Shown here: positions 31,463 to 61,141 of the stretch, piece by piece
Numbering within the stretch: the first letter of the stretch is position 1
Layout: each line of letters opens with the position of its first letter
Assembly: GCF_001570765.1 (NCBI RefSeq)
Contig: NZ_BCSH01000008.1
Span: 1 to 64,000, forward strand
DNA length: 64,000 nt
Reading direction: 5' to 3'
Source of the DNA: Nocardiopsis listeri NBRC 13360
Lineage (GTDB): Bacteria > Actinomycetota > Actinomycetes > Streptosporangiales > Streptosporangiaceae
Notes under the pieces: generated by a model
Databases searched by the model: none
Told to the model about the DNA's origin: nothing
The model's input: only the letters and a program-made list of their open reading frames with translations
Program-made: the position numbers and the translations under genes

Positions 31463-32875
31463 TCACGTTCGAGGTGAGGCGGGCAGTAGCGTCCGGCGCT
31501 CCGGATCAAGGGTGAGGACGCGGTCCGCGCGGGCGGCGACCTCCCGATCGTGCGTGACCGTGACAACGGCCAGACCCTCCCGCGCACGGAGGGTGTCCAG
31601 GAGATCCAGGACCGTACGCGCGCTCGCGGTGTCCAGGGCCGCGGATACCTCGTCGGCCAACAACACCCGCGGACGCGCGGCCAGGGCGCGGGCGATCGCC
31701 ACCCGCTGCCGTTGGCCGCCCGAGAGGCGGCCGGGGTAGGCGCCTGCGGTCTCCGCGGGCAGGCCTACCCGCCTCAGGAGTTCGGGGACCTCCGCCACGG
31801 CCTGCTCTCGTGTCAGGCCCCGGAGCACCATGGCCGGGCGTGCCAGCGCCGTTCCGACGCGTTGGGCGGGATTGAGGACACCGACAGGGTTCTGGCCGAC
31901 CAGTTGGACGGCTCTCAGTGACTCCCGAGTGCGGTCCGTGTACCCGGTGGGGAGGGGACGTCCGTCCAGGGACAACGAACCCCTTGCCGGGGGATGGAGT
32001 CCGGCAAGACTCCTGAGCAGTGTGGATTTACCGCTTCCGGAGGGCCCCAGGATGGCGACCGCCTCCCCTGAACGGACGGCCAGCTCCGACTCCTCGAGCA
32101 GTTCCCGACCATCCGGTCCGATGAGGCGGATCCCATGGAGGCCGAGGGCCAGGGAGCCGTGTGGGGTTCGGGAGGCCAGGACACCGGTGGCGCTCCGGTG
32201 GGCGGCCCCGGGCTCATCGATGTCGATGAGGGTGTCGGCCACTCGGGCGGCGAACCCCCGGTCGTGGGTGATCACCACGGTGGCTCGGTTCGGGCGTCCT
32301 CGCCGTTGCTCCAGCACGTCGAGCACGAGCTCGACCGTGGCGGGATCCAGGCCGCTGGTGGGCTCGTCCAGCACGAGGAGTTCGGGGTCACCGACGATCG
32401 CGCGGGCCAGGGCCACCCTTTGGGCCTGGCCACCGGAGAGCTCGCGCGGACGCCGACGCCACAGAAGGTCGGCGTCCAGTCCCAGCCGGGTGAGCGTCAC
32501 GCGCACCTTCTCCGTGTTCTCCCGTCGTGTTCCGAGGGGCAGCGCGTCGGCCACGAGGGAGGCCACCGACCGTAGGGGGTGCAGGTCCGACGCGGGGTCC
32601 TGGCCGAGAATCCCCACCCTGGTCAGGCGCCAGCGCCGCCCACCCCGCCCCCGAGGCACCGGGGCTCCCCGCCACCGGACGTGTCCGGAACGGCGGAGCA
32701 GCCCTGGGGGCAGGGCGTCGAGCGCCGCGAGGAGCGCACTGGTCTTGCCGCTGCCGGAAGGCCCCATGAGCGCCATCACCCCTCCGTCGGGGACTCGCAG
32801 GTCCACGGGCCCGACGACCACTCGACCCCGGGTGTCCTCGACCAGTAGCGCTTGCACGTCCAGTCCCTCAGGCAT
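31463..32875 (-). CDS. Fused double ATPase of an oligopeptide/nickel/opine-class ABC importer
   Basis: Product of 470 residues with two complete nucleotide-binding domains in one chain. Domain 1: Walker A GPSGSGKT, signature LSGGQAQRVALARAI, Walker B LLVLDEPTSGLD. Domain 2: GPSGSGKST, LSGGQRQRVAIARAL, VLLADEVSAALD. These correspond to the separate D and F ATPases of Dpp/Opp/Cnt systems. The Gln-loop IGILGQDP and LVGQNP patterns fit that class. The ATG at 32875 overlaps the end of the permease gene (8 bp), so it is the last gene of the operon. It powers uptake by the solute-binding protein and two permeases upstream; metallophore uptake is inferred. Confidence 0.85.
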   Translation of the reverse strand: MPEGLDVQALLVEDTRGRVVVGPVDLRVPDGGVMALMGPSGSGKTSALLAALDALPPGLLRRSGHVRWRGAPVPRGRGGRRWRLTRVGILGQDPASDLHPLRSVASLVADALPLGTRRENTEKVRVTLTRLGLDADLLWRRRPRELSGGQAQRVALARAIVGDPELLVLDEPTSGLDPATVELVLDVLEQRRGRPNRATVVITHDRGFAARVADTLIDIDEPGAAHRSATGVLASRTPHGSLALGLHGIRLIGPDGRELLEESELAVRSGEAVAILGPSGSGKSTLLRSLAGLHPPARGSLSLDGRPLPTGYTDRTRESLRAVQLVGQNPVGVLNPAQRVGTALARPAMVLRGLTREQAVAEVPELLRRVGLPAETAGAYPGRLSGGQRQRVAIARALAARPRVLLADEVSAALDTASARTVLDLLDTLRAREGLAVVTVTHDREVAARADRVLTLDPERRTLLPASPRT

Positions 32876-33689
32876 GGTCCGTCTCCTCTCGCCCCGTCCC
32901 TGCCGGGCGGCGGTCATCGTGTTCCCGAGAGGGCGGTCGGGCGGCGAGTGCGAACAGGAGCGTCGTGACACCGAGTGCGATCGCGGGTGCGGCCACCGCC
33001 CACGGATTGCTCGCCACCCCGCTCATGTTCTCCCTCAGCATGAGAGCCCAGTCCGGCTCGGGCGGGCTCACGCCCAGTCCCAGGACGCCGAGTGCCGCGC
33101 AGACCTGGATCGCCACCACCAGCCGCAGCCCCAGGTCGGCGCAGACCAGTCCGCGCATGGCCGGAAACACTTCACGGAGCAGCACCGAGCTCGTGTGCTC
33201 GCCACGCAGGAGCGCCGCTTCCACGTACCCGGAGGAACGGACGGAGCGGACGGCGTCGCGCACCACCCTCAGCGTGAGCGGGGCACCTCCGCACACCGTC
33301 GCCACGACGACCGCCGACTGCCAGGGCAGGGCGATCGCGGCCACCAGGGCCAGCAACAGGGACGGCAGGGCCAAGAACAGGTCCGCGCAGGCGGTGAGCA
33401 GGCGCGCGACGAACCCACCGGACCATCCCGCCACCAGACCACCCGCGATGCCGATGACGGAGGCGCACACGGCGGCCACCACCGAAACGGTCAGCAGCCG
33501 GCCTCCCCCGGCCAGGACCCGAGACCACACGTCCCGTCCCAGGGCGTCGGTCCCGAGCAGGTATTCGGGGTTCGGCGCCTGCCAGGGGGCACCGGCCGTG
33601 GCGTTGGGGTCGTAGGGCGTGGACCATCCACCGAAGAGCACCAGGGCCGTTGCCACGACCAGTGACAACGGCACCAACAGCCCTCTCAT
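32868..33689 (-). CDS. ABC importer permease, DppC-like
   Basis: Product of 273 residues, about six membrane helices. It has the DppC-family landmark LLGTDALGRDVWSRVLAGG after the first helix and an EAA loop-like VEAALLRGEHTSSVLLREVFP, then GLGVSPPEPDWALML near the end. The start at 33689 overlaps the upstream permease stop as ATGA. With the partner permease it forms the channel of the SBP_bac_5-dependent importer. Confidence 0.85.
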   Translation of the reverse strand: MRGLLVPLSLVVATALVLFGGWSTPYDPNATAGAPWQAPNPEYLLGTDALGRDVWSRVLAGGGRLLTVSVVAAVCASVIGIAGGLVAGWSGGFVARLLTACADLFLALPSLLLALVAAIALPWQSAVVVATVCGGAPLTLRVVRDAVRSVRSSGYVEAALLRGEHTSSVLLREVFPAMRGLVCADLGLRLVVAIQVCAALGVLGLGVSPPEPDWALMLRENMSGVASNPWAVAAPAIALGVTTLLFALAARPPSREHDDRRPAGTGREETDHA

Positions 33690-34684
33690 GTCGTCCTCCC
33701 GTGCTCGGGTTCGGTCAGGGCGGCCGACAGGTCTGCGAGCAACAGTCCCAGCAGCACGATCGCGGCGGCGAGCACGGCCGTGGCCTGCACGACGGGCAGA
33801 TCGCGTGTGGAGATGGCCGAGACCAGGAGCGAGCCCATGCCGGGGTACCCGAAGAGGGCCTCCACCACGGTCGCGGCGGCGATCAGGCCACCCGCCGAGA
33901 CCGCCACGACCCGGACGAAGGGAGTCAGGAGGAAGGGAAGGACGTCCACCAGCGCGATTCGCCAGGAGGGCACGCCCCTGCGTCGGGCGTCGACCACGTG
34001 GGGCATGCGCACGGTGTCGGCGACCGAGCCCGACAGGAGGCTCCCACCGAAGAACGCGGTGGGCAGCGCCATGGACATCACCGGGAGGAAGAGCAGTTCC
34101 GGGTGGTGCCAGGGTGCGGCGCCGGGGGGAATCAGGGACACCGGTGGCACCAGGCCGAGATGGCCCGAGAACAGCGCGGCCAGGGCCGCCGCCACGACCG
34201 CCATGGGGACCGCGGCGCCCCCCGTCAGAACGGCGGTGGGCATCCGGCGTCCTCGCCGTGTCGTGCCCGCCCACCAGGCCAGGGCCGAAGACGCGGGAAC
34301 AACGAGCGCCATGGCTCCTGCCACGACGGTGAGGGTGGCGGGCAGCCTCTGGGCGAGTGCGTCGACGACTGGGCGACCGTTGACCAGGGAGGTGCCCGGA
34401 TCCCCGCTGATCAGGGCACCGACCCAGTCCAGGTAACGCCGCCAGGGTTCGACGTCCAGTCCCAGCTCCTGCCGTAGGTGTCGTACCTGTTCCTCGTCGG
34501 CCCCGGGAGAGGCCCGCAGGTCGGCGGCGTCCCCGGGAAGGAGTTCGGTCACGGTGAAGACCGCTACCGAGACCAGGCCCAGTAGCAGCGTCGCCCGGAC
34601 CAGGGAGAACAGGAGTGAGACCCCCGCGGCGGCCTTCCGTGAGCGTGGAAGGGCCACCGCGGGGGCGGTCGCGGGGCCGGGCAT
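33686..34684 (-). CDS. ABC importer permease, DppB-like
   Basis: Product of 332 residues with the DppB-type N-terminus (LVSVAVFTVTELLPGDAADL), an extracytoplasmic segment containing LGLDVEPWRRYLDWVGALISGDPGTS and an EAA-type loop (VDARRRGVPSWRIALVDVLP) before the last helices (GGLIAAATVVEALFGYPGMG). The start ATG at 34684 overlaps the TGA of the solute-binding protein gene (TGATG), so translation is coupled. A TTG one codon earlier is ignored. It pairs with the DppC-like protein. Confidence 0.85.
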   Translation of the reverse strand: MPGPATAPAVALPRSRKAAAGVSLLFSLVRATLLLGLVSVAVFTVTELLPGDAADLRASPGADEEQVRHLRQELGLDVEPWRRYLDWVGALISGDPGTSLVNGRPVVDALAQRLPATLTVVAGAMALVVPASSALAWWAGTTRRGRRMPTAVLTGGAAVPMAVVAAALAALFSGHLGLVPPVSLIPPGAAPWHHPELLFLPVMSMALPTAFFGGSLLSGSVADTVRMPHVVDARRRGVPSWRIALVDVLPFLLTPFVRVVAVSAGGLIAAATVVEALFGYPGMGSLLVSAISTRDLPVVQATAVLAAAIVLLGLLLADLSAALTEPEHGRTT

Positions 34685-36195
34685 CAACCGGTGGCCTCGA
34701 CCTGTTCGATGAACAGACGGTGGAAGCCGGGACCGGTGGGCAGTCCGCTCACACCGGGTGCGGCCAGGTCGATACCGTCTCCGGTGCCCCAGACCACGTA
34801 GCCGCCGTCGTCGGCGACCCGCTGCTGGAGGTCGGCGAGCAGGGTGTGTCGTTCGTCGTCATCGGCGGTGGCCAGTGCCTCGGCGAAGTCGGCGTCCCAT
34901 TCGGGCTCGTTCCAGCCGGTCTCGTTGATGGGGCCGTCGGACACCAGGGCCATCCGTGCGAAGTCCACGAACCCGTTCCCGCCGAGGCTGTTGAGGTAGA
35001 GCGGCTCGACGTTCCACACCTGGGCCCAGTAGGTGTCGGGCGCTCCGATCTCGATCCGAACGTCGATGCCCGCCTCGGAGAGCTGTTCGGCGACCAGTGC
35101 CGCGGTCTCCTCCATGCCCGGGTAGGAGTTGGTGGCGTGCAGGGTGAGTTCGACGCCGTCCCCGTGTCCGGCCTCCTCCAGCAGTTCACGAGCGCGGTCC
35201 AGGTCGCGTTCGACCGGCTCCACCCGGGGGGCGAAGGGTTCCTCGGAATTGAGCAGGTCCGCGCCCGGCTCCCCGTAACCGAGGAAGACCGTCTCCACGA
35301 GTTGCTCCCGGTCGAGGGCGAGCTTGACGGCCTCGCGCACGTCGGCGTCGTCGAAGGGCTCGCTGCCCAGGTCCATGACCAGCGGGTAGTTCACTCCCCC
35401 GGGCCGGGTGACCACCTGGACGGAGTCGTCCTCTTCGTACTGCCGGGCGCCGGCGGGTGCCACGCTTCCGGCGATGTCGGCCTGCCCCGAGGCCACCGCG
35501 TCGGCCCGCGCCCCCGGATCGGGCATGGCGCTGATCTGGAGTGTGTCGTAGTCGGCCGGCGCACCCCACCAGCCGTCGTGCCGGTTCAGGACGGCGGTGG
35601 TGTCGTCGTGTTCGGCCAGTTGGAACGGGCCGGAGCCGACCACCGGTTCGGTGATGTCGTCGCTGCCCTCGGGCACCACGAAGGTCAGGGAGGCCAGGGC
35701 GCCGCCGACCTCCGCGTAGGGCTGGTGGGTGACCAGTTCGAGGGTGTGCTCGTCCACGACGGAGGAGGACTCCAGGTCGAACATGGACAGGCGGCCGTTG
35801 TTCTCGGCGCCCTTGCCCTGGATGCGCTCCAGGGAGAACAGGACGTCGTCGGCGGTGACCGGCTCACCGTCGGAGAAGACGGCGTCGTCACGGAGGGCGA
35901 TGGTCCATCGGTCCAGGTCGTCACTGTCGGGTTCCCAGGACCGGGCCAGGCGGGCCTGGAGGGCCCCGTCCTCGTCGGTCACGGTCAGAACGTCGTAGAG
36001 CATGGCGAACCGCAGGTAGTCGGATTCGTTGCCGACGCGCCCGTGCGGATCGTGGGTGGTGGCCGCCGGGGCTCCCACCGCCGCGTAGCGCAGGGTGGCG
36101 TCGTCGGCGGAGGCCCGGTCGCCTCCACCGCCACCACAGGCGGTGGCCGCCAGGAGCACCGTGAGGGTGCCCACCGGCAGGAATCGTCGTCTCAT
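34684..36195 (-). CDS. SBP_bac_5 solute-binding lipoprotein (peptide/nickel/opine class)
   Basis: Product of 503 residues. The signal peptide ends in the lipobox LLAATAC, and the mature protein begins with a Gly-rich linker. Family 5 features include ARLARSWEPDSDDLDRWTIALRDDAVFSDGEPVTADDVLFS and later REAVKLALDREQLVETVFLGYGEPG. This class includes DppA, NikA and the staphylopine receptor CntA, unlike the FhuD/FecB class usual for ferric siderophores. Its place directly downstream of the NRPS, P450 and ferredoxin genes indicates that it binds the cluster's own metal complex. Ligand identity is inferred. Confidence 0.85.
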   Translation of the reverse strand: MRRRFLPVGTLTVLLAATACGGGGGDRASADDATLRYAAVGAPAATTHDPHGRVGNESDYLRFAMLYDVLTVTDEDGALQARLARSWEPDSDDLDRWTIALRDDAVFSDGEPVTADDVLFSLERIQGKGAENNGRLSMFDLESSSVVDEHTLELVTHQPYAEVGGALASLTFVVPEGSDDITEPVVGSGPFQLAEHDDTTAVLNRHDGWWGAPADYDTLQISAMPDPGARADAVASGQADIAGSVAPAGARQYEEDDSVQVVTRPGGVNYPLVMDLGSEPFDDADVREAVKLALDREQLVETVFLGYGEPGADLLNSEEPFAPRVEPVERDLDRARELLEEAGHGDGVELTLHATNSYPGMEETAALVAEQLSEAGIDVRIEIGAPDTYWAQVWNVEPLYLNSLGGNGFVDFARMALVSDGPINETGWNEPEWDADFAEALATADDDERHTLLADLQQRVADDGGYVVWGTGDGIDLAAPGVSGLPTGPGFHRLFIEQVEATG

Positions 36196-36277
36196 CGTTC
36201 GGCCTTTCTCGGGGGCGGGGCCGTGTTCGACACGTCCCCGGAAGGGGTCTGTGGACCCGGGGTTGTGGAAAGCGGGA

Positions 36278-37770: not shown

Positions 37771-39541
37771 GGCCTTTCGTGGTGGATGCGGGAGGGGTCG
37801 TGACGTCCGAAGTGGTCAGGCGCCAGCCGCGGGCGCGTTCACGGGTCCGGACGAAATCGGCGTGCCGCCCTCCCCGTTCGAGGAGTTCCTCCGGAGCTCC
37901 GGACTCCACGACGCGGCCCCCTTCGAGGAAGACGACCTGGTCGGCGGCGGCCACGGTGGCGGGGCGGTGGGCGATGACCAGCACGGTGCGCTCCCTGGCG
38001 AGTTCGACGGCTGTGCGTGTCACCAACGCCTCGTTCTCGGCGTCCAGGGCCGAGGAGGCCTCGTCCAGGACGATGACCGGCGCGTCCTTGAGCAGAGCCC
38101 GTGCGATGGAGACCCGCTGTTTCTGCCCGCCGGACAGTGCGGTTCCGCCCTCCCCGACCCTGGTGTCCCAGCCCTGGGGCAGGTCGGACAGGACCGTGTC
38201 GAGCCCGGACAGGGCCGCCACCCGGTCGAGGTGTTCATCGGTGGCGTCGGGGGCGGCCAGGCGCAGGTTCTCGGCGACGGTGGCGTCGAAGAGGTACACG
38301 TCCTGGAAGACCAGGGCCACGTGCCGAGAGAGTTCATCGCCGCCGATGTCCCGGACGTCGACCCCGCCGATGCGGACCCGGCCGCGGTCGGCGTCGTGAA
38401 AGCGGGCGAGCAGACGGGCCACCGTGGTCTTGCCGGATCCGGAGGGTCCTACCAGGGCGGTGAGGGTTCCGGGTTCGGCGCGCAGGGTGACCGCGTCCAG
38501 TGCCGGGGTGTCGTCCTTGCGGTCGTAGGCGAAGGTGACGTCGTCGAACTCCACGACCGCTCCCCGCGGCGGGACCGGCGACTCCGGTTCGGGGAGGGGT
38601 CTGGCGTCCAGGACGGCGTTGATCCGGTCGAGTTGGTTGGTGGCCATGCGCAGGGCGGCGCCCTGGTCGGCGGCCGTGGCCAGGGGGTGGGTGAACCGGG
38701 CCACCAGCACCAGCAGGGCCACGGCCAGGGCGGGGTCGAGTCCGCCGTCCGGGACGAGCACGACCGCGCACACCATGAGCAGCGCGAACATCAGCCGGAC
38801 CGCGAAGGAGTAGACCGACATCACCGGGACGATGCGCAGCAGCAGACGGCGCGCGGCACCGTGTTCGGCGTTCAGGGCCCGATCCAGGCTCTGACCGCCT
38901 TGTTCGGTGCGGCCGAAGGCCCGCAACACCGGTTGGGACCTGGCGTACTCCAGGACCCGGGAGGCGGCCTCGTCCGAAACCATGTCCCGGGCGGCGTCGT
39001 TGCGCCCCACCGCGTCGTTGGACAGGGCGAAGACCATCCACACCACGGGCAGGCAGGCCGCGGCGGCCAGGGCGATCCGCCAGTCCCAGAGGAACAGCGC
39101 CAGTACCGCCACGACGGGGGTGACCACGGCGTCGGCCAGCGGTGGGTAGATGTGCACTGGCACGTTGGTGCTGCGGGACACCCCCTCGGTGACGACCCGG
39201 TTGAGCTCACCGACGCGGTTCCCGGTGAACCAGCCCAGGGGCAGCCGGACCAGGTGCTCCCCGATGCGGTGGTGCAGGCCACGGGAGATCGCCCCGCCCA
39301 CCCGGAAGTTGACGAAGAGGCTGAGGGTGCGCAGCAGGGCGTAGACCAGGGCGGCCAGGGCCAGGGCCCCAGCCCAGCCCAGGGCCGCTCGGGGGCCCTG
39401 GCGCAGAAGTTCGGTCAGCACGGGCACCAGCAGGGCGAAGACCAGCCCCTGCAACGCCGAGACGAGCGTGGTCAGGGCCAGACTCCTCTTCACGGGACCG
39501 GCCTGTTCCGGTCCCAGGGCCCTGAGGAAAGCACGGATCAC
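37745..39541 (-). CDS. ABC half-transporter, YbtQ/IrtB-like (TMD-NBD)
   Basis: Product of 598 residues: a six-helix exporter-fold membrane domain in the first ~320 residues (LPLGWFTGNRVGELNRVVTEG as in siderophore half-transporters), then an NBD with VGPSGSGKTT, LSGGQKQRVSIARALL and VIVLDEASSALD. The His switch is in LVIAHRPATV. The GTG start at 39541 overlaps the stop of the partner half-transporter (GTGA). YbtPQ and IrtAB proteins have this fold yet import metal-siderophores, so direction (export of apo-form or import of complex) is not decided by sequence. The pair forms a heterodimer. Confidence 0.85.
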   Translation of the reverse strand: MIRAFLRALGPEQAGPVKRSLALTTLVSALQGLVFALLVPVLTELLRQGPRAALGWAGALALAALVYALLRTLSLFVNFRVGGAISRGLHHRIGEHLVRLPLGWFTGNRVGELNRVVTEGVSRSTNVPVHIYPPLADAVVTPVVAVLALFLWDWRIALAAAACLPVVWMVFALSNDAVGRNDAARDMVSDEAASRVLEYARSQPVLRAFGRTEQGGQSLDRALNAEHGAARRLLLRIVPVMSVYSFAVRLMFALLMVCAVVLVPDGGLDPALAVALLVLVARFTHPLATAADQGAALRMATNQLDRINAVLDARPLPEPESPVPPRGAVVEFDDVTFAYDRKDDTPALDAVTLRAEPGTLTALVGPSGSGKTTVARLLARFHDADRGRVRIGGVDVRDIGGDELSRHVALVFQDVYLFDATVAENLRLAAPDATDEHLDRVAALSGLDTVLSDLPQGWDTRVGEGGTALSGGQKQRVSIARALLKDAPVIVLDEASSALDAENEALVTRTAVELARERTVLVIAHRPATVAAADQVVFLEGGRVVESGAPEELLERGGRHADFVRTRERARGWRLTTSDVTTPPASTTKGHENDPART

Positions 39542-50690: not shown

Positions 50691-50773
50691 GGTGGGTTCT
50701 CCCGAAGAAGTGATGGGGGTGCGCCTGGGCGTGGGCTGGAGCGGCGGGCCCGGTGGGGGATCGGCGAACGGCG

Positions 50774-53700: not shown

Positions 53701-56700
53701 CGAACACCGCTCTGAGCATGTCGTGTCGGGCCACGAGACGGTCCAGGGCGTGTTCGATGCGCCGGAGGTCGACGTCGTCGCCGTCGAACTCGGTGTAGTG
53801 GTAGGTGCCGACCCCGCCCAGGGTGAAGTCCTGGCTGCGGCCGGTCAGGTAGGCCCGTTGGACCCCGGTGGCGGGGAACGGGTCGTGACGCGTGTCGGCG
53901 TCGTGGTGGATGCGCCGGTCGTCGGTGGCCTCGCCGCGTTCGGTCAAGGTGGCGGCGAAGTCCTTGAGCACCGGGTGGGCGAACAGTCGAGACACACGCG
54001 CCCCCACGTGGCCCGCGCGGCGGAGGGCGGCCACGGCGCGCGTGGCCAGGAGCGAGTCGCCGCCCAGGGTGAAGAAGGAGTCCGTGCGGGCCGGTTCCGG
54101 TGTGTCCAGCAGCTCGGACCAGATCCGGGCGACCAAGGCCTCGGGCTCGCCCTGAGGGGGCTCGTGCCGACCGGTGCCGCCGGAGAGATGCTCCCGTAGG
54201 AGTCGGGCGACGGCGGCGCGGTCGGGTTTGCCGTTCGGGGTCAGCGGGACCTCGGAGAGTTCCAGCACCGGCTCGGGGACCATCGCCGGGGGCAGCAGGG
54301 CGCGCAGGTGTTCGGCGAGCGTTTGGAGCCGTTCGGTGATGTCGTTCCCGACTGCCTTGCGCGGGACGACCACGGCGGCCGGCCTGGGGGCTGGGCTGTC
54401 GAGCACGACGGCCACCGCGGCGCGAACGTCGGGATGGGTGGTCAGGGCGGCCTCGATCTCACCGGTCTCCATCCGCACACCGTTGACCTTCACCTGGTGG
54501 TCGGTCCTGCCCAGGAACTCCAGGGAGCCGTCGGGGAGGTGGCGGGCCGAGTCCCCGGTGCGGTACCAGCGTCGGCCGCGGTCGGCGACGAAGCGTTCGG
54601 CGGTCAGGTCAGGGTCTCCCCGGTACCCGCGGGCGAGCCCCGCGCCCGCGACCCACAACTCTCCCGGGACCAGGTCGGGGCGGTCGCGACCCTGGACGTC
54701 CACCACACGGCAGGAGACTCCGGGCAGTGGAAGCCCCCAGGGCACGCAGGTCCAGGAGGGGTCGGTGTCGTGGACCTCCAACAGGGTGGAGTGGACTGCC
54801 GCCTCGGTCATGCCGCCCAGAGCGAGGAAACGGCACTCGGGGGCCTGGGTCCGCAGCCGGTGCGCGAGGGCGGGCGGGATCCGGTCACCGCCCAACAGCA
54901 CGGCCCGTAGGGGCGGCATCGGTGCCGTACCGGTCTCCACCGCCGACAGGAGCATGTCGAGGAAGGCGGGTACGCAGTTGAGGACGGTCACCGCCGCCTC
55001 CGACGCGGCCCGGGCCCAGCGTTCCGCGTCACGACGATCGGTCGACTCGACCAGTACCGCCGCACCTCCCACGGACAAAGGCGCGAACAGGTCGAAGACG
55101 GACATGTCGAAGTCGTACTCGGCCAGGCAGAGCGCCCGGTCGTCTCCACCCGCGCCCAGGGCGGTGGTGAGCACGTCGATGGTGTGGGCGGCGGAGCGGT
55201 GTTCGATCTCCACCCCCTTGGGGTGACCGGTGGATCCGGAGGTGAACAGTACGTAGGCCACGGAGTCCGGTGACGTGTTCCGTTCCGTTCCCGGTGCCAG
55301 GTCCCGGATCTGTTCGACGGTGAGGACGGGCACCTGGGAACCGGTCAGGAGGTCGGGGGCGTCGGTGATCACCAGTTCGGGGGCGCCGAGCGTCAGGATC
55401 CGGTCGCGCCGCACCACGGGCTGGGCCCGACTCACCGGGAGGTAGGCGCAGCCGGCGGCGAGTACCCCCAGGATCGCGGCGACCTGGTCCGCTCCCCGCG
55501 GCAGGTGCACGGCGACGGTCGCTCCGACGGGCACCCCGGCCTGGACGGCTCCGGCCACGCGTAGCGCCAGATCGGCCAGGCCACCGTAGGTGAGCGCCTC
55601 CCCGGAGGTCGACACCAGGGCGACGTCCTCGGGACGGGTGCGCGCGTGGGCGAAGAAGGGTGCGTGGAGCGGGCGAGGGGCGGGTTCGGGGAGGTCGAGG
55701 GCGGTCGTGGCTCGGGCCCGCACCTGCGCGTTCGAGAGGAGGGGCTCGAAGCGGCTCTCCCACACCCGCGGATCGTCCACCAGACCCTCGACCAGGTCCC
55801 GGTAACAGTCGAAGGCCTCCTCCATGGTGCCGGGCTCGAAGGCGCGCGCACGCAGGTCCCAGTTGAGCAGTAGTCCTTCGTCGAGTTCGGTGACCTGGGC
55901 GTCCAGGAGGACCTGGGGACCCTGGGAGATGATCCAGGAGGGGTGGCCGAAGCACTCCTGGACGTCGTCGGTGAACAGGGGCCCCAGCCCGATGGCGCTG
56001 GTATAGACCACCGGTGCCAGTACCGGGGTTCCACCGTTGCGACGGGTCAGGTCACGGAGCACCTCCACTCCCCCATAAGCGCCGTGGTCGACGGCACGGT
56101 GCAGGTCGCCCTGGATGGTGCGGGCACGTTCGACGAACGTCATCGGGGCACCGGTGTCCACGCCCAGCAGCACGGAACTGCTGAAGTCGCCGATGAGCCG
56201 GTCGATCTGCGGGTGCAACGGCGCACGGTCGAACAGCGGCAGGTTGAGACTGAAAGCCGGGTCGGCGTTCCAGGCGCCGAGCACCTCGGCGAAGGCCGTG
56301 GCCAGGGCGGCGGCGGGGGTGATCCCGAAGTCACGGGACCGTCGCTCGAACGCTCGCGCCCGTTCCGGGGTGAGCCGGTGGTGCAGACGGCGGGAGCGGG
56401 TCATGGGGTCCGTGGGACGGGCCGGGGCCTCGGCGTCGGGGCGGACCGGCAGGGTGGGCGGAGACGGAATCTCCGGCAGGCGCGTCTGCCACCAGGCGCG
56501 TGCCCGTTCACGTTGTTCGCGCCCGCGCTCACGCCGGTCGACGAGGTACTCGGCGAAGTCGTACTCCAGGGGCGAAGCGTCCACTCCCAGGTAAGCGCCG
56601 CGCAGGTCCTCCAAGAGCACGCGAAGGCTGAGTGCGTCCGCGACGATCATGTCGAGATCCACGTGCAGTCGGGTGGCGCCCCCGGGGAGCAGGCTCAGGG

Positions 56701-57346
56701 CGATGTCCAGGACCTCGCCGGCGGCGACGTCCATGCGTCGGTGGGTGGCCTCCTCCCTGATCCGCTCCAGGGTCCGTTCGACCCCGGTCGCGGGCAGATC
56801 GCGTAGGTCGTGCACGGTGACCACGGGTTCGGCCCCGACGGGTTCGACACGTTGGTGGCCGTCGTCGTCGAATCGGGCCCTGAGCATCGGGTGGCGGTCC
56901 ACCACGATCCGAAGCGCCCGCGCCAAGCGGTCGGGGTCGATCCCGGCGCCGTCGAACTCGGTGTAGAAGTGGGCGGCCACGGCGCCGAGGGGTTGGTCGT
57001 CCTGCCGGCCGATCCAGTAGGCGTGCTGCATGGTCGCCATCGGGAACGGTTCCCCCTCGGCCCGCTGTCGGGCGTTCCCCGAAGGCTCCGGTAGGTGGGC
57101 CGCGTGTGCCTGGTGGAGCAGCGCGGTCCAGGCGGCGACCGTGGGCACGGCCGAGAGGTCCGCGAAGGTGACGTCGAATCCGTTCTCCCTCCAGGCACCC
57201 GAGAGCCGGATCATCCCGAGTGAGTCGAGCCCGTGCTCGAAGAGGTCGTCGGTGTCGACGAAACCCCTGGTTCCGAGTACTTCGGCCACCTGTTCGCGAA
57301 TGGCCTCGATCACCGGTCCGGCTTCTCTGGTCACTGAACCGCGCAC
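50774..57346 (-). CDS. NRPS: ArCP-Cy-A-PCP-Cy-A-PCP (HMWP2/Irp2-like)
   Basis: Product of 2190 residues. Aryl carrier domain with HGLDSLG (Ser42); Cy1 (about 100-540) with DMIVAD (232-237); A1 (about 555-1050); PCP1 LGGDSLL (Ser1098); Cy2 (about 1155-1590) with DYLVLD (1289-1294); A2 (about 1610-2095); PCP2 LGGTSLL (Ser2141). A2's specificity residues (D,L,Y,N,L,S,L,I,W) match cysteine. A1's (D747,M748,F751,N790,L817,G819,L843,V851,H852) resemble the Thr code DFWNIGMVH more than Cys. The enzyme should take dihydroxybenzoyl-AMP, add a Thr- or Ser-like residue cyclised to an oxazoline, then a thiazoline. GTG 57346 is used; its ribosome site is poor and a slightly later GTG is possible. Confidence 0.9.
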   Translation of the reverse strand: MRGSVTREAGPVIEAIREQVAEVLGTRGFVDTDDLFEHGLDSLGMIRLSGAWRENGFDVTFADLSAVPTVAAWTALLHQAHAAHLPEPSGNARQRAEGEPFPMATMQHAYWIGRQDDQPLGAVAAHFYTEFDGAGIDPDRLARALRIVVDRHPMLRARFDDDGHQRVEPVGAEPVVTVHDLRDLPATGVERTLERIREEATHRRMDVAAGEVLDIALSLLPGGATRLHVDLDMIVADALSLRVLLEDLRGAYLGVDASPLEYDFAEYLVDRRERGREQRERARAWWQTRLPEIPSPPTLPVRPDAEAPARPTDPMTRSRRLHHRLTPERARAFERRSRDFGITPAAALATAFAEVLGAWNADPAFSLNLPLFDRAPLHPQIDRLIGDFSSSVLLGVDTGAPMTFVERARTIQGDLHRAVDHGAYGGVEVLRDLTRRNGGTPVLAPVVYTSAIGLGPLFTDDVQECFGHPSWIISQGPQVLLDAQVTELDEGLLLNWDLRARAFEPGTMEEAFDCYRDLVEGLVDDPRVWESRFEPLLSNAQVRARATTALDLPEPAPRPLHAPFFAHARTRPEDVALVSTSGEALTYGGLADLALRVAGAVQAGVPVGATVAVHLPRGADQVAAILGVLAAGCAYLPVSRAQPVVRRDRILTLGAPELVITDAPDLLTGSQVPVLTVEQIRDLAPGTERNTSPDSVAYVLFTSGSTGHPKGVEIEHRSAAHTIDVLTTALGAGGDDRALCLAEYDFDMSVFDLFAPLSVGGAAVLVESTDRRDAERWARAASEAAVTVLNCVPAFLDMLLSAVETGTAPMPPLRAVLLGGDRIPPALAHRLRTQAPECRFLALGGMTEAAVHSTLLEVHDTDPSWTCVPWGLPLPGVSCRVVDVQGRDRPDLVPGELWVAGAGLARGYRGDPDLTAERFVADRGRRWYRTGDSARHLPDGSLEFLGRTDHQVKVNGVRMETGEIEAALTTHPDVRAAVAVVLDSPAPRPAAVVVPRKAVGNDITERLQTLAEHLRALLPPAMVPEPVLELSEVPLTPNGKPDRAAVARLLREHLSGGTGRHEPPQGEPEALVARIWSELLDTPEPARTDSFFTLGGDSLLATRAVAALRRAGHVGARVSRLFAHPVLKDFAATLTERGEATDDRRIHHDADTRHDPFPATGVQRAYLTGRSQDFTLGGVGTYHYTEFDGDDVDLRRIEHALDRLVARHDMLRAVFDADGNQRVLPGAPPVRVLVTDAREQDDPGPALETFRDTMAHQVLDPTRWPLFDVRALRYTREGVERVRLGVGLDYLVLDALSIMTLYTELDLLYREPDARLEPVDVTFRDYLTQVETDPDAEKRSRQYWRERITELPPAPDLPLRVDPDQIERPRFTRRSQRLDPQEWSALTELARRAAITPSTLLLACYGEVLSAWSGQTDLSVTLTLFNRQDLHPHVERVLGDFTSLSLTSYRRRPGERPIAAARALQHLLGQDLDHREASAEWVLRELARHTGTSRPGIPVVFTGSLGVGSGVSMDRSAEFPRRVWGLSQSPQVHLDNQVMESGGTLEVSWDAVEELFRPGVLDGMFDAYLDMLRTLAREGERAWDHAVATLLPEGQRRSRASAHRPATDPPAGLLQDAFFDGVPQRSDTPALITDQETLTHGQVADRALRIASGLTERGVRVGDAVAICLPKGPDQVCAVLGALAAGAVYVPIGVGQPELRRERVHRTAGTAWAIGDGTGAPRSVTVAALLESAPLAAPVRPDPAQAAYTIFTSGSTGEPKGVEVSHAAALNTVADINERYRIGPRDRVLALSALDFDLSVYDVFGLLGAGGALVLPDEEERRDAERWRALCADHGVTVWNTVPALLDMLILASREDGFPHALRLALVSGDWVGTDLAPALRRANGVGTHLVALGGATEAGIWSNAFEGGHVPRGWPSVPYGYPLRNQCYRVVDPHGRGCPDWVPGELWIGGAGVALGYRGDPERTADRFVEHEGRRWYRTGDLGRYRPGTILEFLGRTDRQVKVGGHRLELGEVEAALEAHPHVRRAAVVALGERGTSTMAAFVASGAGTPTPDELTRHMARYLPGHAVPGHVTVLDELPLTGNGKVDTTVLEDSASAWNGPNGEPLTGPTEEMLAQLWSELLQAPIEDRHANFFVLGGTSLLAVRMMTLLRQRVDDRLSVRSFLADPTLAALADQVRAYTGDDVRTGVI

Positions 57347-57378
57347 CCCCTGTGGTCACGTTGAATCCGACAAGCAAT

Positions 57379-57397
57379 AATGAAAACCGTTTTCATT
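57379..57397. promoter_or_regulatory. Perfect 19-bp palindrome, probable Zur box of the divergent metallophore promoter
   Basis: AATGAAAACCGTTTTCATT is perfectly symmetric around 57388. Its core TGAAAAC-C-GTTTTCA has the 7-1-7 form of actinobacterial Zur sites (TGAAAATGATTTTCA type) and resembles the sites at 61248 and 61350 in this window. It lies 33 bp upstream of the first NRPS start and 74 bp upstream of the ligase start, so one bound dimer pair could block both promoters. Zur binding is inferred from the shared pattern. Confidence 0.85.
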
Positions 57398-57470
57398 GTC
57401 GGTATGTCCATGTATAGCACCGGCGGGAGCCCGGGGTCGACCCCGGGCCCCGCGGAATCGGGAGGGATCG

Positions 57471-59096
57471 ATGTCACAGGACTGGCCGCGGCGACCGGAG
57501 AGGTCGGCCCGTCACTACCGCGAGCAGGGTTTCTGGGAGGACGGATCGCTGGACGACCTGCTCGAAGAACAGGCCGCCCACAGGGCGGATCATCCGGCGC
57601 TGGTCTCGGGTGGGGAGCGTCTGACCTACGCGGAGCTGAACGCGCGTGTGGACCGTCTGGCCTCGGGGTTGGCCGGACTCCCGATCCGTCGAGGCGAACG
57701 CGTCCTCGTGCAACTGCCCAACCACACCGAGTACGTGGTCACGGTCTTCGCCCTCTTCCGGATCGGGGCCGTACCGATCCTGGCCCTACCGGCGCTGGGC
57801 CCCGCGGACCTGGAATCGCTGGTGCGCATCGGTGAGGCCGGCGCCATGATCGTCGCCCCGGGTCGTGGACCGAGGGCCTCATCGACGGTCGCCGAGAAGA
57901 TCGCTCTCTCCGCCCCGTCCGTACGGCACCTGGTGGTGGCCGGTGGCTCCGGGGACGGCACCGCGGTGCCGTGGGACTCGCTCCTGACCCCCTCCGAGGG
58001 ACCCCGCCCCGCGTCCATCTCCTCGGAACGTTCCCCCGACGACCTGGCGCTGCTCCTGCTGTCCGGGGGCACCACCGGAACCCCCAAGCTGATCCCCAGG
58101 ACCCACGCCGACTACCGCTACAACGCACGGGCTTCGGCCGAGGCGAGCGGAGTGGACGAGAACGCCGTCTACCTGGCCGTCCTTCCCGTCGCCCACAACT
58201 TCACGATGGTCTCCCCCGGCATCGTGGGCACCTTCGCGGTCGGGGGCACCGTGGTCCTCTGCCCGGACCCGAGTCCGACGACCGCGTTCGAACTGATCGA
58301 GCGCGAGCGGGTGACCATCAGCGCACTCGTCCCGGCCCTGGTCGGTCCATGGCTGGACGAGGCCCGCAGGTCGGAGCGGGACCTGGGTTCGCTGAAGGTC
58401 CTCCAAGTGGGAGGAGCACGCCTGGACGAGGCCACCGCCCGCAGTGTGGGACCGACACTGGGCTGCCGTCTACAACAGGTGTTCGGCATGGCAGAGGGTC
58501 TGAACAACTACACCGGCCTGGACGACCCCGAAGACCTGGTGTGCACCACCCAGGGCCGTCCGCTCTCCCCTGCCGACGAGGTCCTGGTGGTCGACGAACA
58601 GGGAGATCCGCTCCCCGCGGGCTCAGTCGGTGAATTGCTCACCCGGGGCCCCTACACCCTCCGGGGCTACTACCGCGCGCCGGAGCTGAACCCCTTGTGT
58701 TTCACTCCGGACGGGTTCTACCGCACCGGAGACCTCGTCACCCGGTCCGAGAACGGCGACCTCACGGTCGTGGGCCGGGTCAAGGACCAGATCAACCGGG
58801 CGGGAGAGAAGATCGCCGCGATCGAGGTCGAGGAGATTCTCATGGGCCTGCCGGGGGTACGGGCCGCCGCTGTTCTGGGCCTTCCCGATCCGGTGCTCGG
58901 TGAGCGCTCGGTGGCGCTCCTGGTCGCTCCGGGGCAGGAGGGCCCGACCAAGGAGGAGGTGCGCGCGGAGTTGTCCGAACGTGGAGTCGCGGCCTTCAAG
59001 GTGCCCGACGAGGTACGCCGGGTGGAACGGCTTCCACTCACCGGGGTGGGCAAGGTGGACAAGAAACGCCTCCGGCGGGAACTGACCGGGGCCTAG
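57471..59096 (+). CDS. dhbE: 2,3-Dihydroxybenzoate-AMP ligase (DhbE/EntE-like)
   Basis: Product of 541 residues, stand-alone aryl-activating enzyme. It has LLSGGTTGTPKLIPRTHADY, VAHNFTMVSPG, VLQVGGARLDEATA, QQVFGMAEGLNNYTGLDD, YRTGDLV, KDQINRAGEKIAA and GVGKVDKK (catalytic Lys near the end). In DhbE, the residue equivalent to Ser248 here (Ser240) marks dihydroxybenzoate, whereas salicylate enzymes have Cys; this favours 2,3-DHB. The residue equivalent to DhbE Val337 is Asn, which is unusual. It loads the ArCP of the first NRPS. The ATG at 57471 with GGGAGGG five bases before is clearly better than the upstream GTG at 57396, which lies inside the palindrome region. Confidence 0.9.
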   Translation: MSQDWPRRPERSARHYREQGFWEDGSLDDLLEEQAAHRADHPALVSGGERLTYAELNARVDRLASGLAGLPIRRGERVLVQLPNHTEYVVTVFALFRIGAVPILALPALGPADLESLVRIGEAGAMIVAPGRGPRASSTVAEKIALSAPSVRHLVVAGGSGDGTAVPWDSLLTPSEGPRPASISSERSPDDLALLLLSGGTTGTPKLIPRTHADYRYNARASAEASGVDENAVYLAVLPVAHNFTMVSPGIVGTFAVGGTVVLCPDPSPTTAFELIERERVTISALVPALVGPWLDEARRSERDLGSLKVLQVGGARLDEATARSVGPTLGCRLQQVFGMAEGLNNYTGLDDPEDLVCTTQGRPLSPADEVLVVDEQGDPLPAGSVGELLTRGPYTLRGYYRAPELNPLCFTPDGFYRTGDLVTRSENGDLTVVGRVKDQINRAGEKIAAIEVEEILMGLPGVRAAAVLGLPDPVLGERSVALLVAPGQEGPTKEEVRAELSERGVAAFKVPDEVRRVERLPLTGVGKVDKKRLRRELTGA

Positions 59097-59105
59097 GAGA
59101 ACGGA

Positions 59106-59143
59106 CGGTGGTGGGGGCGGGGCGGTTTCCGCCCCCACCACCG
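59106..59143. terminator. Bidirectional hairpin between ligase and isochorismatase genes
   Basis: CGGTGGTGGGGGCGG and CCGCCCCCACCACCG are perfect 15-bp arms around an 8-base loop. They lie between convergent genes whose stops are 49 bp apart. Confidence 0.85.
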
Positions 59144-59144
59144 G

Positions 59145-59780
59145 TCAGGACTGGAACGCGACGAGGGTCTCCTTGGTGGTCACCGTGACGGCGCATCGGC
59201 GAGCGGCGTAGGACAGGGCCGTCTCGTGATCGCGAGCGGAGAAGTCGGCCACCGCGTCCGCGACGACGAACGCCTCGATGTCCCGCATGAAGGCGTCACA
59301 GGCGGTCATGAGGACACCGATGTGGGCGTACACACCGCACACGACCAGCTGGTCCCGTCCCAGGGCACGCATTCGCTCCTCCAGGTCGGTACGGACGAAG
59401 GCACTGTAACGCCACTTGGTCAGGACCACCTCGTCCGGGGTCGGGGCCAGGTCCTCGACGATCCCGCTGTGCGCGGGATCGTCCCTGAGCCCTTCTCCCC
59501 ACAGGTCCCGTAGCAGGCCACGCTCCTGTTCGTTCTGTGAACCGGGTTGGGCGGTGAAGATCCGGGGCACCCGGCTCGATCTGCACCGGTCGAGGAGGGC
59601 ACCGATGTTGGCCAGCAGTTCCGGGACCGGTTCACTTCCCGGGGTGAAGGCGTCGAGAAAGTACCGCTGCATGTCGTGGACCAGTAGGACACAGCGCGCG
59701 GGGTCGATCTTCCAGTCCATCCGTTCGGCGGACGGAGCCCCCGGCATGGGATAGGGCTCGATGGAGGGCAGGGCGGACAC
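59145..59780 (-). CDS. dhbB: Isochorismatase (EntB/DhbB N-domain type, without ArCP)
   Basis: Product of 211 residues. [14 protein letters not shown] (catalytic Asp35), [18 protein letters not shown] (Lys) and [21 protein letters not shown], where Gly replaces the nicotinamidase Cys, identify the isochorismatase of the 2,3-DHB pathway. It hydrolyses isochorismate to 2,3-dihydro-2,3-dihydroxybenzoate. EntB/DhbB usually carries a C-terminal aryl carrier domain of about 80 residues; here it is absent, and the carrier is at the N-terminus of the first NRPS. The GTG start has AAGGAG upstream. Last gene of the zur operon. Confidence 0.9.
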
Positions 59781-59860
59781 AGGAGTCTCCTTCTATGTGT
59801 GAAGGCGTGGGGATCGGGGGCAGGGCAGGGCCCACACGTGGTCGGCCGCGTTGGTCGAGA

Positions 59861-60676
59861 TCAGGCTCCGAGACCGGCTCCGCCGTCCACGCGCAGGTCG
59901 TGCAGGGTGATGTGTCGGGCCCTGGCGGAGAGGAGGAAGGCCACGGCGTCGGCGATGTCCTCGGGGGCGGCCACTCGCCCCAGGGGAACATCCACCCGGA
60001 AGTCGGTGAGGTCCGGCCCGTTCGGAGAGAGGCTCTCCCTGGAAGTGCCATCGCCCCACAACCGCCGACGCATCGGTGTTTCGGTGGAGCCGGGAGAGAC
60101 CACGTTGCACCGGATCCCGTGAGGGGCCATCTCGAGGCCGAAGCACATGGTGAACTGGGTGGCGGCGGCCTTGGATGCGGCGTAGGCGGCCATGGACACC
60201 CTGGGAACCGAGGCGGCGTCGGATCCTACGGTGACGATGTTCCCGTGCCCGCGAGACACCATTCTCGAAGAGACCGCACGGCAGACGTTGAAAACCCCCA
60301 AGGCGTTGCTCGCGAAGAGTTCGTGCCAGTGCCGGGTCGGGAAGTGCGAGGTCGCCCCGTGGCGCAGGAGACCGGCGACGTTGGCGACGGCGGTGATCGG
60401 CCCGAGACCCTGCTCCACCTGGTGGACCAACCGTTCCACGGCGTCCTCGTCGCCGATGTCCACGCCGTAGTGGACCACCCGGTGGCCTTCGTGTTCGAGT
60501 TCGGCCGCCAACCGTCGGGCCGGGGACTCACGGCGGTCGACCGCGGCGACGGTGTGGCCTTCCGCCGCCAGGCTCCGCACGACGGCGGCACCGATACCTC
60601 CGGCGGCACCGGTGACCAGGGCGACACCCTCGTCGGATCCATCTGACTTTCCCGGTCTATCGGGATGAGAGGTCAC
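59861..60676 (-). CDS. dhbA: 2,3-Dihydro-2,3-dihydroxybenzoate dehydrogenase (EntA/DhbA-like)
   Basis: Product of 271 residues, SDR fold: LVTGAAGGIGAAVV, ANVAGLLRHGAT, SNALGVFNVCRAV, TVGSDAASVPRVSMAAYAAS with the Tyr-x3-Lys, and SPGSTETPMRRRLW. The GSDAAxVPR..MAAYAASKAA string is diagnostic for EntA-type enzymes. It oxidises the isochorismatase product to 2,3-dihydroxybenzoate with NAD+. It lies between zur and the isochorismatase on the same strand (70 and 80 bp gaps), probably one operon. No isochorismate synthase (entC/dhbC) is in the window, so isochorismate must come from elsewhere. Confidence 0.9.
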   Translation of the reverse strand: MTSHPDRPGKSDGSDEGVALVTGAAGGIGAAVVRSLAAEGHTVAAVDRRESPARRLAAELEHEGHRVVHYGVDIGDEDAVERLVHQVEQGLGPITAVANVAGLLRHGATSHFPTRHWHELFASNALGVFNVCRAVSSRMVSRGHGNIVTVGSDAASVPRVSMAAYAASKAAATQFTMCFGLEMAPHGIRCNVVSPGSTETPMRRRLWGDGTSRESLSPNGPDLTDFRVDVPLGRVAAPEDIADAVAFLLSARARHITLHDLRVDGGAGLGA

Positions 60677-60745
60677 AGCGCTCCCTTCACGAGCGTTCCG
60701 CGCCGCGTCCGGAGCTCCAAGACCAACGAGGGCGGGCTCACGCGA

Positions 60746-61141
60746 TCACAGACAACGTGGACAGACACCGGTCAGTTCGAAGGTGTGGTCGACCTGAGCG
60801 AAATCACTCAGGCAGCGGATCTTCTCCACGACCGCTGCGATCTCGGCGACCTGCGCGATCTCCTCCACCTCACCGCAGACACGACAGAAGAGGTGGTAGT
60901 GGCGGACAGGTGTTCCACACCGCCGGTACAGACGCTCCCCTTCGGGCGACTGGATCGTGTCCAGCACACCCTCCTGGGACATCCGGTGGACCGTGCGGTA
61001 GATGGTGGACAGGCTCGGCGGACCCGTGGCGCAGGAGTGCGACCGATCCAGGTCCCGCAGGATCTCCCGACAGCTGCGAAAGCGGGAACTACGGTCCAGG
61101 ACCTGGAGCACGGCTTCGTCGTACTTGGGTGTGTTGACCAT
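60746..61141 (-). CDS. zur: Fur-family zinc regulator (Zur)
   Basis: Product of 131 residues. Winged helix with SLSTIYRTVHRMSQEGVLDTI, then the metal domain VRHYHLFCRVCGEVEEI (Cys-x2-Cys and His) and a final GVCPRCL (second Cys-x2-Cys), giving the structural zinc site. The HYHLFCRxCG pattern fits Zur of actinomycetes better than Fur or Nur. It starts at the ATG 61141 and is first in the operon with the two DHB genes. The palindrome at 61248-61262 suggests autoregulation. It probably controls the NRPS promoter, the ribosomal-protein operon and itself. Confidence 0.85.
   Translation of the reverse strand: MVNTPKYDEAVLQVLDRSSRFRSCREILRDLDRSHSCATGPPSLSTIYRTVHRMSQEGVLDTIQSPEGERLYRRCGTPVRHYHLFCRVCGEVEEIAQVAEIAAVVEKIRCLSDFAQVDHTFELTGVCPRCL

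What the first reader, a model, noticed from the sequence alone, without database searches (positions are those of the whole stretch)
31463..61141. A Zur-controlled metallophore cluster: probable zincophore of the coelibactin type
Seen: a divergent promoter between the first NRPS and the aryl-AMP ligase holds a perfect 19-bp palindrome. Its core has the same 7-1-7 form as the sites before zur and before the zinc-free ribosomal protein operon a few kb away. The gene content (ligase, two NRPSs, imide reductase, thioesterase, methyltransferase, P450, ferredoxin, two half-transporters and an SBP_bac_5 importer) corresponds to the coelibactin cluster, whose Zur control in Streptomyces coelicolor is established. 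Inferred: the product serves zinc, not iron, uptake.
Basis: partly seen in the sequence, partly recalled or inferred. Interest (0 to 1): 0.95.

Follow-up and report, generated by a model that had tools for sequence, protein, structure and literature searches.

The report
Catechol-capped coelibactin-like zincophore cluster
A 30-kb gene cluster from a Nocardiopsis-like bacterium carries DNA sites matching the zinc-starvation switch Zur and likely makes a secreted zinc-catching molecule related to coelibactin, but one predicted to be capped with a catechol instead of coelibactin's salicylate.

Summary
AATGAAAACCGTTTTCATT (57379-57397) is a 9-1-9 palindrome that fits the published Zur motif. Genome-wide, TGANAANNNTTNTCA occurs at 6 places, its reversed control at 1. 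Besides this promoter, exact or one-mismatch sites precede znuA, znuCB, two alternative ribosomal-protein operons and a Fur-family gene; an IdeR-type pattern was not found in the window. Gene content and the P450's best PDB match (CYP105N1) place the cluster in the coelibactin family.

(1) Beside the ligase lie dhbB and dhbA, behind their own Zur-type site, so the aryl cap is predicted to be 2,3-dihydroxybenzoate. Over 54 related loci, all 10 with dhbA+dhbB have the DHB-type Ser in the ligase; all 41 readable loci without them have the salicylate-type Cys. (2) The 'zur' here is a divergent paralogue lacking D-site residues; a ScZur-like zur sits beside znuCB on another contig.

Verdict: new variant of a known kind. 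Zur-type control and family are well supported by sequence, the catechol cap well supported but untested, zinc as the physiological metal inferred. A catechol (classically an Fe(III) ligand) whose synthesis genes carry a Zur-type site is the surprising part.

The parts
57379..57397 (.). Zur-type operator AATGAAAACCGTTTTCATT in the divergent NRPS1/ligase promoter
   Evidence: Sequence; zero-mismatch place genome-wide; identical 19-mer at the same place in 5 of 9 DHB-type related loci, 0-1 mismatch to TGANAANNNTTNTCA in 9 of 9; 0 mismatch in 3 of 3 further relatives
61248..61262 (.). Zur-type site before the fur-family/dhbA/dhbB genes
   Evidence: site with 0-1 mismatch before the same operon in 9 of 9 DHB-type related loci, directly before dhbA in the 3 that lack the fur-family gene
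61350..61364 (.). Zur-type site (1 mismatch) before the COG0523-like GTPase/ribosomal operon
50774..57346 (-). NRPS1: carrier-Cy-A-PCP-Cy-A-PCP; A-domain codes DMFNLGLVH (Thr-like, tentative) and DLYNLSLIW (Cys)
   Evidence: Pfam: 2 condensation, 2 AMP-binding, 3 PP-binding; codes (meaning of codes recalled)
45189..50690 (-). NRPS2: TubC dock-Cy-A(MT)-PCP-TE; A code DLYNMSLIW (Cys-like); TE motif GYCLG (active-site cysteine)
44065..45192 (-). Saccharopine-dehydrogenase-like protein (SrbE-type)
   Evidence: PF03435 (scanned as the longer frame 44065-45858); homologues; PMC10127202
42950..44068 (-). Thiazolinyl imide reductase
   Evidence: TIGR01761 314.9 bits, cut-off 188.8
42174..42929 (-). 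Stand-alone thioesterase
   Evidence: PF00975 (scanned as the longer frame 42174-43541)
41364..42035 (-). SAM methyltransferase
   Evidence: Pfam
39538..41367 (-). ABC half-transporter, predicted exporter
   Evidence: PF00664+PF00005
37745..39541 (-). ABC half-transporter, predicted exporter
   Evidence: PF00664+PF00005
36493..37764 (-). Cytochrome P450, CYP105N1-like
   Evidence: Best PDB match 3TYW, 461.5 bits, next 334; 3TYW is CYP105N1 (PMC3430247)
36278..36499 (-). Ferredoxin
   Evidence: PF06902/PF13459/PF13370
34684..36195 (-). SBP_bac_5 solute-binding lipoprotein (best NCBIfam matches NikA-like, far below cut-offs)
33686..34687 (-). ABC permease
   Evidence: PF00528
32868..33689 (-). 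ABC permease
   Evidence: PF00528 (scanned as the longer frame 32868-34274)
31463..32971 (-). ABC ATPase with two ATP-binding domains
   Evidence: PF00005, 2 stretches
57471..59096 (+). Aryl-AMP ligase with DHB-type Ser (HNFTMVSPG) and Asn at the DhbE-337-equivalent position
59145..59780 (-). dhbB: isochorismatase
   Evidence: PF00857; no NCBIfam model over cut-off
59861..60676 (-). dhbA: 2,3-dihydro-2,3-dihydroxybenzoate dehydrogenase
   Evidence: TIGR04316 306.8 bits, cut-off 300
60746..61141 (-). Divergent Zur-type Fur-family protein; C79/H87 equivalents and structural cysteines kept, H84/E105 equivalents (D-site) lost
61404..63319 (+). COG0523/MRF-like GTPase (below NCBIfam cut-off), S18, L28, S14 operon: neighbouring zinc-regulon-type genes

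Best explanation
The cluster likely makes and takes back a coelibactin-family zincophore whose first building block is predicted to be 2,3-dihydroxybenzoate, and its promoter carries a Zur-type operator through which zinc-loaded Zur would keep it off until zinc runs low. Shown by sequence: the operator, a second Zur-type site before the dhbA/dhbB genes, the enzyme set, and the ligase residue. Inferred: when zinc falls Zur leaves both sites; DhbB and DhbA turn isochorismate (in this genome presumably from the menD-linked isochorismate synthase on another contig) into 2,3-DHB; the ligase loads it on NRPS1, which adds a Thr-like residue and a Cys, NRPS2 a methylated Cys; the imide reductase, P450 and other enzymes tailor it and the cysteine thioesterase releases it; the half-transporters export it and the SBP_bac_5 system imports the metal complex. 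Zinc as the physiological metal rests on regulation and neighbourhood alone.
For: Operator; motif PMC5472717. Sites of the same form precede znuA, znuCB and alternative ribosomal-protein genes in this genome. IdeR-type pattern: 8 places with up to 3 mismatches in the genome, none in the window; in S. [quoted passage not shown] Operator conservation: 0-1 mismatch in 9 of 9 DHB-type loci, 0 in 3 of 3 further ones. Second site before the fur/dhb operon in 9 of 9 of those loci and the window. Family: TE cysteine motif, P450 best match 3TYW, imide reductase over cut-off, synteny. Cap: dhbA over cut-off; ligase Ser as in the 3 DHB ligases shown, Cys in the 2 salicylate ligases shown (5 of 12 chains printed); 10 of 10 loci with dhbA+dhbB have Ser, 41 of 41 readable loci without have Cys; this residue sets DHB/salicylate preference in BasE and EntE (PMC12005286, passages); four of the 9 relatives carry an isochorismate synthase over the TIGR00543 cut-off in the same operon.
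Against: Nothing was measured. Catechols are classical Fe(III) ligands (recalled). The ligase's 337-equivalent is Asn, as in neither class seen, so its substrate is not certain; BasE itself adenylates salicylate with only 3-fold lower efficiency than DHB. dhbC is missing here, and dhbA/dhbB-like genes can also serve 3-hydroxyanthranilate synthesis (PMC12971057). In 2 of 3 extra relatives dhbA is not beside the cluster. Reversed-pattern control gives 7 places at up to one mismatch against 13. A Zur-type site also lies before a FecCD/Peripla_BP_2 importer, so such sites here are not confined to clearly zinc-specific systems. The 51 loci are related by descent, so they are far fewer independent events.
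Confidence: 0.62

Rival explanations
1. A broad-spectrum or mainly iron-binding catechol-oxazoline siderophore that happens to be placed under Zur control, used for both Fe and Zn.
For: The predicted 2,3-DHB-oxazoline head is a common Fe(III)-binding unit (recalled); the coelibactin-like mupirochelin binds Fe and Zn and is repressed more by Fe (PMC10080011); sorangibactin shows siderophore-like behaviour (PMC10127202); a FecCD/Peripla_BP_2 importer elsewhere also has a Zur-type site.
Against: No IdeR-type site in the window among 8 places found in the genome; Zur-type sites at both promoters and in 9 of 9 DHB-type relatives; neighbours are zinc-regulon-type genes.
Confidence: 0.25
2. Coelibactin proper: salicylate-capped, made with salicylate from elsewhere in the genome; dhbA/dhbB serve another route.
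For: Same backbone family; a DHB ligase (BasE) accepts salicylate.
Against: Three chorismate-binding enzymes were found in the genome: an isochorismate synthase whose salicylate-synthase score is far below cut-off (106 vs 325), an aminodeoxychorismate synthase and an anthranilate synthase. Ligase Ser; dhb genes conserved beside the ligase behind a Zur-type site. A stand-alone isochorismate pyruvate-lyase was not searched for.
Confidence: 0.08
3. The cap is 3-hydroxyanthranilate or a related aryl acid made by dhbA/dhbB-like enzymes.
For: The two pathways share near-identical enzymes (PMC12971057); Asn at the ligase 337-equivalent is unusual.
Against: Four of 9 relatives have an isochorismate synthase over the TIGR00543 cut-off between dhbB and dhbA; of the three chorismate-binding enzymes of this genome the other two are over cut-offs for PabB (TIGR00553) and anthranilate synthase (TIGR01815).
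Confidence: 0.05

Closest known systems
Coelibactin cluster of Streptomyces coelicolor (SCO7676-92)
   Same: Ligase, two NRPSs, saccharopine-dehydrogenase-like protein, imide reductase, thioesterase, methyltransferase, CYP105N1-type P450, ferredoxin, two half-transporters, SBP_bac_5 importer (read here in Streptomyces relatives, not in S. coelicolor itself); Zur bound at SCO7676 and SCO7681/7682 promoters (PMC5472717).
   Different: Streptomyces relatives carry a salicylate synthase and a salicylate-type ligase Cys, and mostly have importer and ferredoxin beside the ligase; this cluster has dhbA/dhbB, ligase Ser, a linked Fur-family paralogue, and the importer at the far end. Isolation of coelibactin had failed as of PMC10127202 (2023).
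Sorangibactin cluster (Sorangiineae MSr11367)
   Same: SaccDH-like SrbE, CYP105N1-like P450, TE with active-site Cys (PMC10127202, passages).
   Different: Serine-derived oxazole, salicylate cap, studied as a siderophore; no Zur control in the passages read.
Mupirochelin, transvalencin A, uniformides
   Same: Described as homologous structures to coelibactin; two of the compounds contain zinc (PMC10080011, passages).
   Different: Salicylate cap and iron-dominated regulation in mupirochelin.
Coelibactin-like clusters annotated in Nocardiopsis codii and Streptomonospora nanhaiensis
   Same: antiSMASH matches to coelibactin in the same group of bacteria (PMC11475406; PMC12842786; passages).
   Different: No cap or Zur analysis in the passages read.
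(S,S)-EDDS of Amycolatopsis japonicum
   Same: Zur-controlled metallophore of an actinobacterium (PMC6103462).
   Different: Not an NRPS product (recalled).

Membership tests
Coelibactin-family NRPS cluster | Ligase, two NRPSs, SaccDH-like, imide reductase, TE, MT, P450, ferredoxin, half-transporters, SBP_bac_5 importer | tested here: met
Coelibactin-family NRPS cluster | CYP105N1-type P450 | tested here: met
   Best PDB match 3TYW, identified in PMC3430247
Coelibactin-family NRPS cluster | Active-site Cys in the NRPS TE domain | tested here: met
   GYCLG; feature from PMC10127202
Coelibactin proper | Salicylate cap: salicylate synthase in cluster and salicylate-type ligase residue | tested here: not met
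   No salicylate synthase among the 3 chorismate-binding enzymes of the genome; ligase Ser. That coelibactin's pathway makes salicylate: PMC5445379
Zur regulon | 7-1-7 Zur-type operator at the promoter | tested here: met
Zur regulon | Zur binding and zinc-dependent repression | not testable with these tools
   Needs gel shift and expression data
Zincophore | Product binds and delivers zinc | not testable with these tools
   No compound
2,3-DHB cassette | Isochorismatase plus 2,3-dihydro-2,3-DHB dehydrogenase plus isochorismate synthase | tested here: inconclusive
   dhbA over cut-off, isochorismatase domain; the only isochorismate synthase found is on another contig near menD
Canonical Zur (window gene 60746-61141) | Structural Cys and M-site residues C79 and H87 | tested here: met
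   Alignment, residues from PMC11077047
Canonical Zur (window gene 60746-61141) | D-site residues H84 and E105 | tested here: not met
   Arg and Ala at the aligned places; ScZur-like protein with HHHH beside znuB

The most novel reading that the evidence does not exclude
Actinobacteria have turned a salicylate zincophore into a catechol one, perhaps twice, by a single-residue change in the ligase together with capture of DHB genes. In Nocardiopsis and kin the DHB genes were placed behind Zur-type sites of their own, and in some a second Zur without D-site residues became part of the cluster, giving a zinc-regulated catechol metallophore with its own zinc sensor.
Probability: 0.4. Interest if true: 0.68.

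Novelty: new variant of a known kind. Interest (0 to 1): 0.52.

Why it matters
Catechols are treated as iron ligands. A catechol metallophore regulated by zinc would show that cap chemistry does not reveal the metal and that operators are needed to tell zincophores from siderophores, as PMC12971057 expects in general (passage). The salicylate/DHB split across one family, with linked genes, ligase residue and operator, gives a natural experiment for what the cap does to metal choice. It also offers a route to a product in a family whose founder, coelibactin, had not been isolated as of PMC10127202.

Tried and rejected
Iron control by an IdeR-type site: none in the window. The window's Fur-family gene as the main zur: rejected, the genome holds three Fur-family proteins and the ScZur-like one is beside znuB. 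Salicylate supply from elsewhere: no salicylate synthase found. NCBIfam did not settle the ligase: it falls below the DHB-ligase cut-off (604 vs 723.55), and so does the salicylate-type Streptomyces ligase (610.6), so the residue comparison was used. Three further family members with a distant SaccDH (L151-L153) showed no ligase in the stretch fetched and were not counted. L148-L150 have the contig lengths of loci already in the set and were not used. In the operator test 2 of 40 loci (L126, L137) were left out because ligase and NRPS1 lay far apart. In one search, 3 of 54 loci had an unreadable ligase residue; 26 of the 80 loci were not given to it. No structure prediction was run. The paper library holds open-licence papers only; searches touching a catechol-type or Nocardiopsis coelibactin in print were.
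Full report
Observation. The site is real: 57379-57397 is AATGAAAACCGTTTTCATT, palindromic around one central base, with the 7-1-7 form of the S. coelicolor Zur motif (PMC5472717, passages). In the window's own genome (5.69 Mb, 154 contigs) TGANAANNNTTNTCA occurs without mismatch at 6 places; its reversed control occurs at 1. The 6 are: this promoter; before the fur-family/dhb genes (61248); before znuA on C1; before a ribosomal operon on C85 (L32 by Pfam, L33 and L31 by eye); between an MFS gene and a methyltransferase gene on C49; and on C104 at the called start of an AraC-type gene, 37 bases before a divergent FecCD permease. One-mismatch places include the GTPase-S18-L28-S14 operon (61350), znuC-znuB on C19 and a second site on C49; but at up to one mismatch the control gives 7 places against 13, and three of the 13 were not examined. 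An IdeR-type pattern has 8 places at up to 3 mismatches, none in the window.

Cluster. All genes from NRPS1 to the importer (57346 down to 31463) read on the minus strand. Pfam and NCBIfam give the parts listed. NRPS1 reads carrier-Cy-A-PCP-Cy-A-PCP and NRPS2 dock-Cy-A(MT)-PCP-TE. Signature residues (meaning of codes recalled) are DMFNLGLVH (Thr-like), DLYNLSLIW (Cys) and DLYNMSLIW (Cys-like). The TE has the motif GYCLG; an active-site cysteine there is the rare feature reported for sorangibactin and coelibactin (PMC10127202, passages). The P450's best solved match is 3TYW, 461.5 bits against 334 for the next; 3TYW is CYP105N1 of the coelibactin cluster (PMC3430247, passages). The organism is near Nocardiopsis: the best named SaccDH match is N. 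ganjiahuensis, 83%.

What was missed: the cap. Between ligase and Fur-family gene lie an isochorismatase (dhbB) and a 2,3-dihydro-2,3-dihydroxybenzoate dehydrogenase over its NCBIfam cut-off (306.8 vs 300). The ligase has Ser where the two salicylate ligases shown have Cys and the three DHB ligases shown have Ser (5 of 12 chains printed). This residue sets DHB against salicylate preference in BasE and EntE (PMC12005286, passages). The coelibactin pathway makes salicylate (PMC5445379, passages).

Comparative test. A scan of genome contigs with a SaccDH alignment gave 80 loci, the best of 220 relatives. I sought the cluster ligase in 54 of these 80: 40 with an extra stretch fetched on the ligase side (for N. 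halotolerans on another contig of its genome) and 14 from the locus itself. dhbA (45% or more over 200 aa) and dhbB (45% or more over 150 aa) were both present in 10, all with Ser: nine loci of the Nocardiopsis group (one record is titled Glycomyces fuscus) and Parafrankia, whose dhbA scores below the family cut-off (281.4 vs 300). Of 44 without them, 41 were readable and all 41 had Cys; 33 of the 44 had a homologue (38% or more over 200 aa) of the S. coelicoflavus salicylate synthase, as did 1 of the 10, Parafrankia (recounted). Only the S. coelicoflavus and Parafrankia enzymes were put to the salicylate synthase model, both over cut-off (378.8 and 397.2 vs 325.15); four Nocardiopsis-group loci have an isochorismate synthase over the TIGR00543 cut-off between dhbB and dhbA, below the narrower DhbC cut-off. 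In a SaccDH tree of 55 rows the Nocardiopsis group, the window included, is a clade at 100/99 and the starred branches force two changes of the label; but Parafrankia is a long branch and an AU test does not quite reject one clade (p 0.052). So the association rests on one or two events of change, not on 51 independent loci.

A further look at 150 genomes of the family found the SaccDH in 15, the window's own among them. Three close ones not in the set served as a fresh check: 3 of 3 have the Ser/Asn ligase residues, dhbB and a zero-mismatch operator; dhbC in 2 of 3; dhbA beside the cluster in 1 of 3, and a 52-53% dhbA-like gene elsewhere in the other two. In one of the three (L155) the ligase reads in two frames. 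No relative of the window's Fur-family protein was found in those three stretches. Four listed genomes of the same genus lack the SaccDH at that threshold, so the cluster is patchy.

Regulation. The divergent ligase/NRPS1 promoter was scored in 38 of 40 loci: best site 0 mismatches in 8, one in 12, two in 17, three in 1. All nine Nocardiopsis-group loci have 0 or 1, which block shuffles reached in at most 1 of 1000. The two-mismatch sites of many Streptomyces and other loci are only marginal against shuffles (0.019 to 0.068), though they sit at a similar distance from the ligase (81-112 bases). The fur/dhb operon has its own site with 0 mismatches in the window and 5 of 9 relatives and 1 in the other 4; where the fur-family gene is absent (3 of 9) the site stands directly before dhbA.

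The Fur-family gene. Three such proteins were found in the genome. The ScZur-like one, with the HHHH motif, follows znuC-znuB on C19. The window's protein matches best 7vo0, 3mwm (S. coelicolor Zur; identity of the entries recalled, residue numbers agree with PMC11077047) and 2o03 (FurB). It keeps C79, H87 and the cysteines, but has Arg and Ala at H84 and E105, the residues mutated to remove the D-site in ScZur (PMC11077047, passages). A relative lies beside dhbA in 6 of 9 loci; Arg stands at the H84 place in 4 of these 6, the other two having a gap there. Which Zur acts on the operator cannot be told from sequence.

Mechanism and limits. Under zinc starvation both promoters would be released, DHB made, loaded, elongated, tailored, exported and the metal complex taken up. 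Three chorismate-binding enzymes were found in the genome: an isochorismate synthase on C82 (286.6 vs 224.75) near menD (429.8 vs 244.2), an aminodeoxychorismate synthase on C7 and an anthranilate synthase on C28. DHB would thus draw on the menaquinone branch. Zinc rather than iron as cargo rests on regulation and neighbourhood. Against it: catechol chemistry, and a relative that binds both metals (PMC10080011, passages).

Novelty. No paper in the listings and passages I saw (searches; open-licence library only) described a catechol-capped, Zur-linked coelibactin relative. Coelibactin-like clusters have been noted by antiSMASH in Nocardiopsis codii (PMC11475406, passage) and Streptomonospora nanhaiensis (PMC12842786, passages). 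I rate it a new variant of a known kind.

Noticed in passing
G000:C49:192-5386 (locus L019): Two Zur-type sites lie between an MFS transporter and a methyltransferase-DUF364 ('putative heavy-metal chelation')-GHMP kinase-PALP gene row: a possible second zinc-regulated metallophore pathway.
   Followed up: partly
G000:C104:14499-18345 (locus L018): A FecCD permease, ABC ATPase and Peripla_BP_2 importer row, divergent from an AraC-type gene, with the same 15-base Zur-type core as the NRPS promoter; a candidate alternative importer.
   Followed up: partly
63407-63712 (-), site at 63885: Histidine-rich small protein (HEHGEGCGH repeats) with a one-mismatch Zur-type site about 170 bp upstream; a similar protein in N. 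ganjiahuensis (L105:7696-8019).
   Followed up: no
L070, L073, L076, L078, L085, L088, L089, L093, L097, L102, L103, L104: All 12 Nocardia loci have a zero-mismatch Zur-type site (mostly TGAAAAAGATTATCA) near the divergent methyltransferase gene, suggesting Zur control there too.
   Followed up: no
L047:918-17880: Parafrankia cluster has both a salicylate synthase (397.2 vs 325.15 bits) and dhbA/dhbB, with a DHB-type Ser/Val ligase: perhaps an intermediate of the cap change.
   Followed up: partly
L155:15289-16910: The ligase of one fresh relative reads in two frames, so it may be broken or carry a sequencing error.
   Followed up: no
12467-13636: A radical-SAM-like protein (CNLACDYCYMYE motif, by eye) beside large neighbouring genes, possibly a peptide-modification system.
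   Followed up: no
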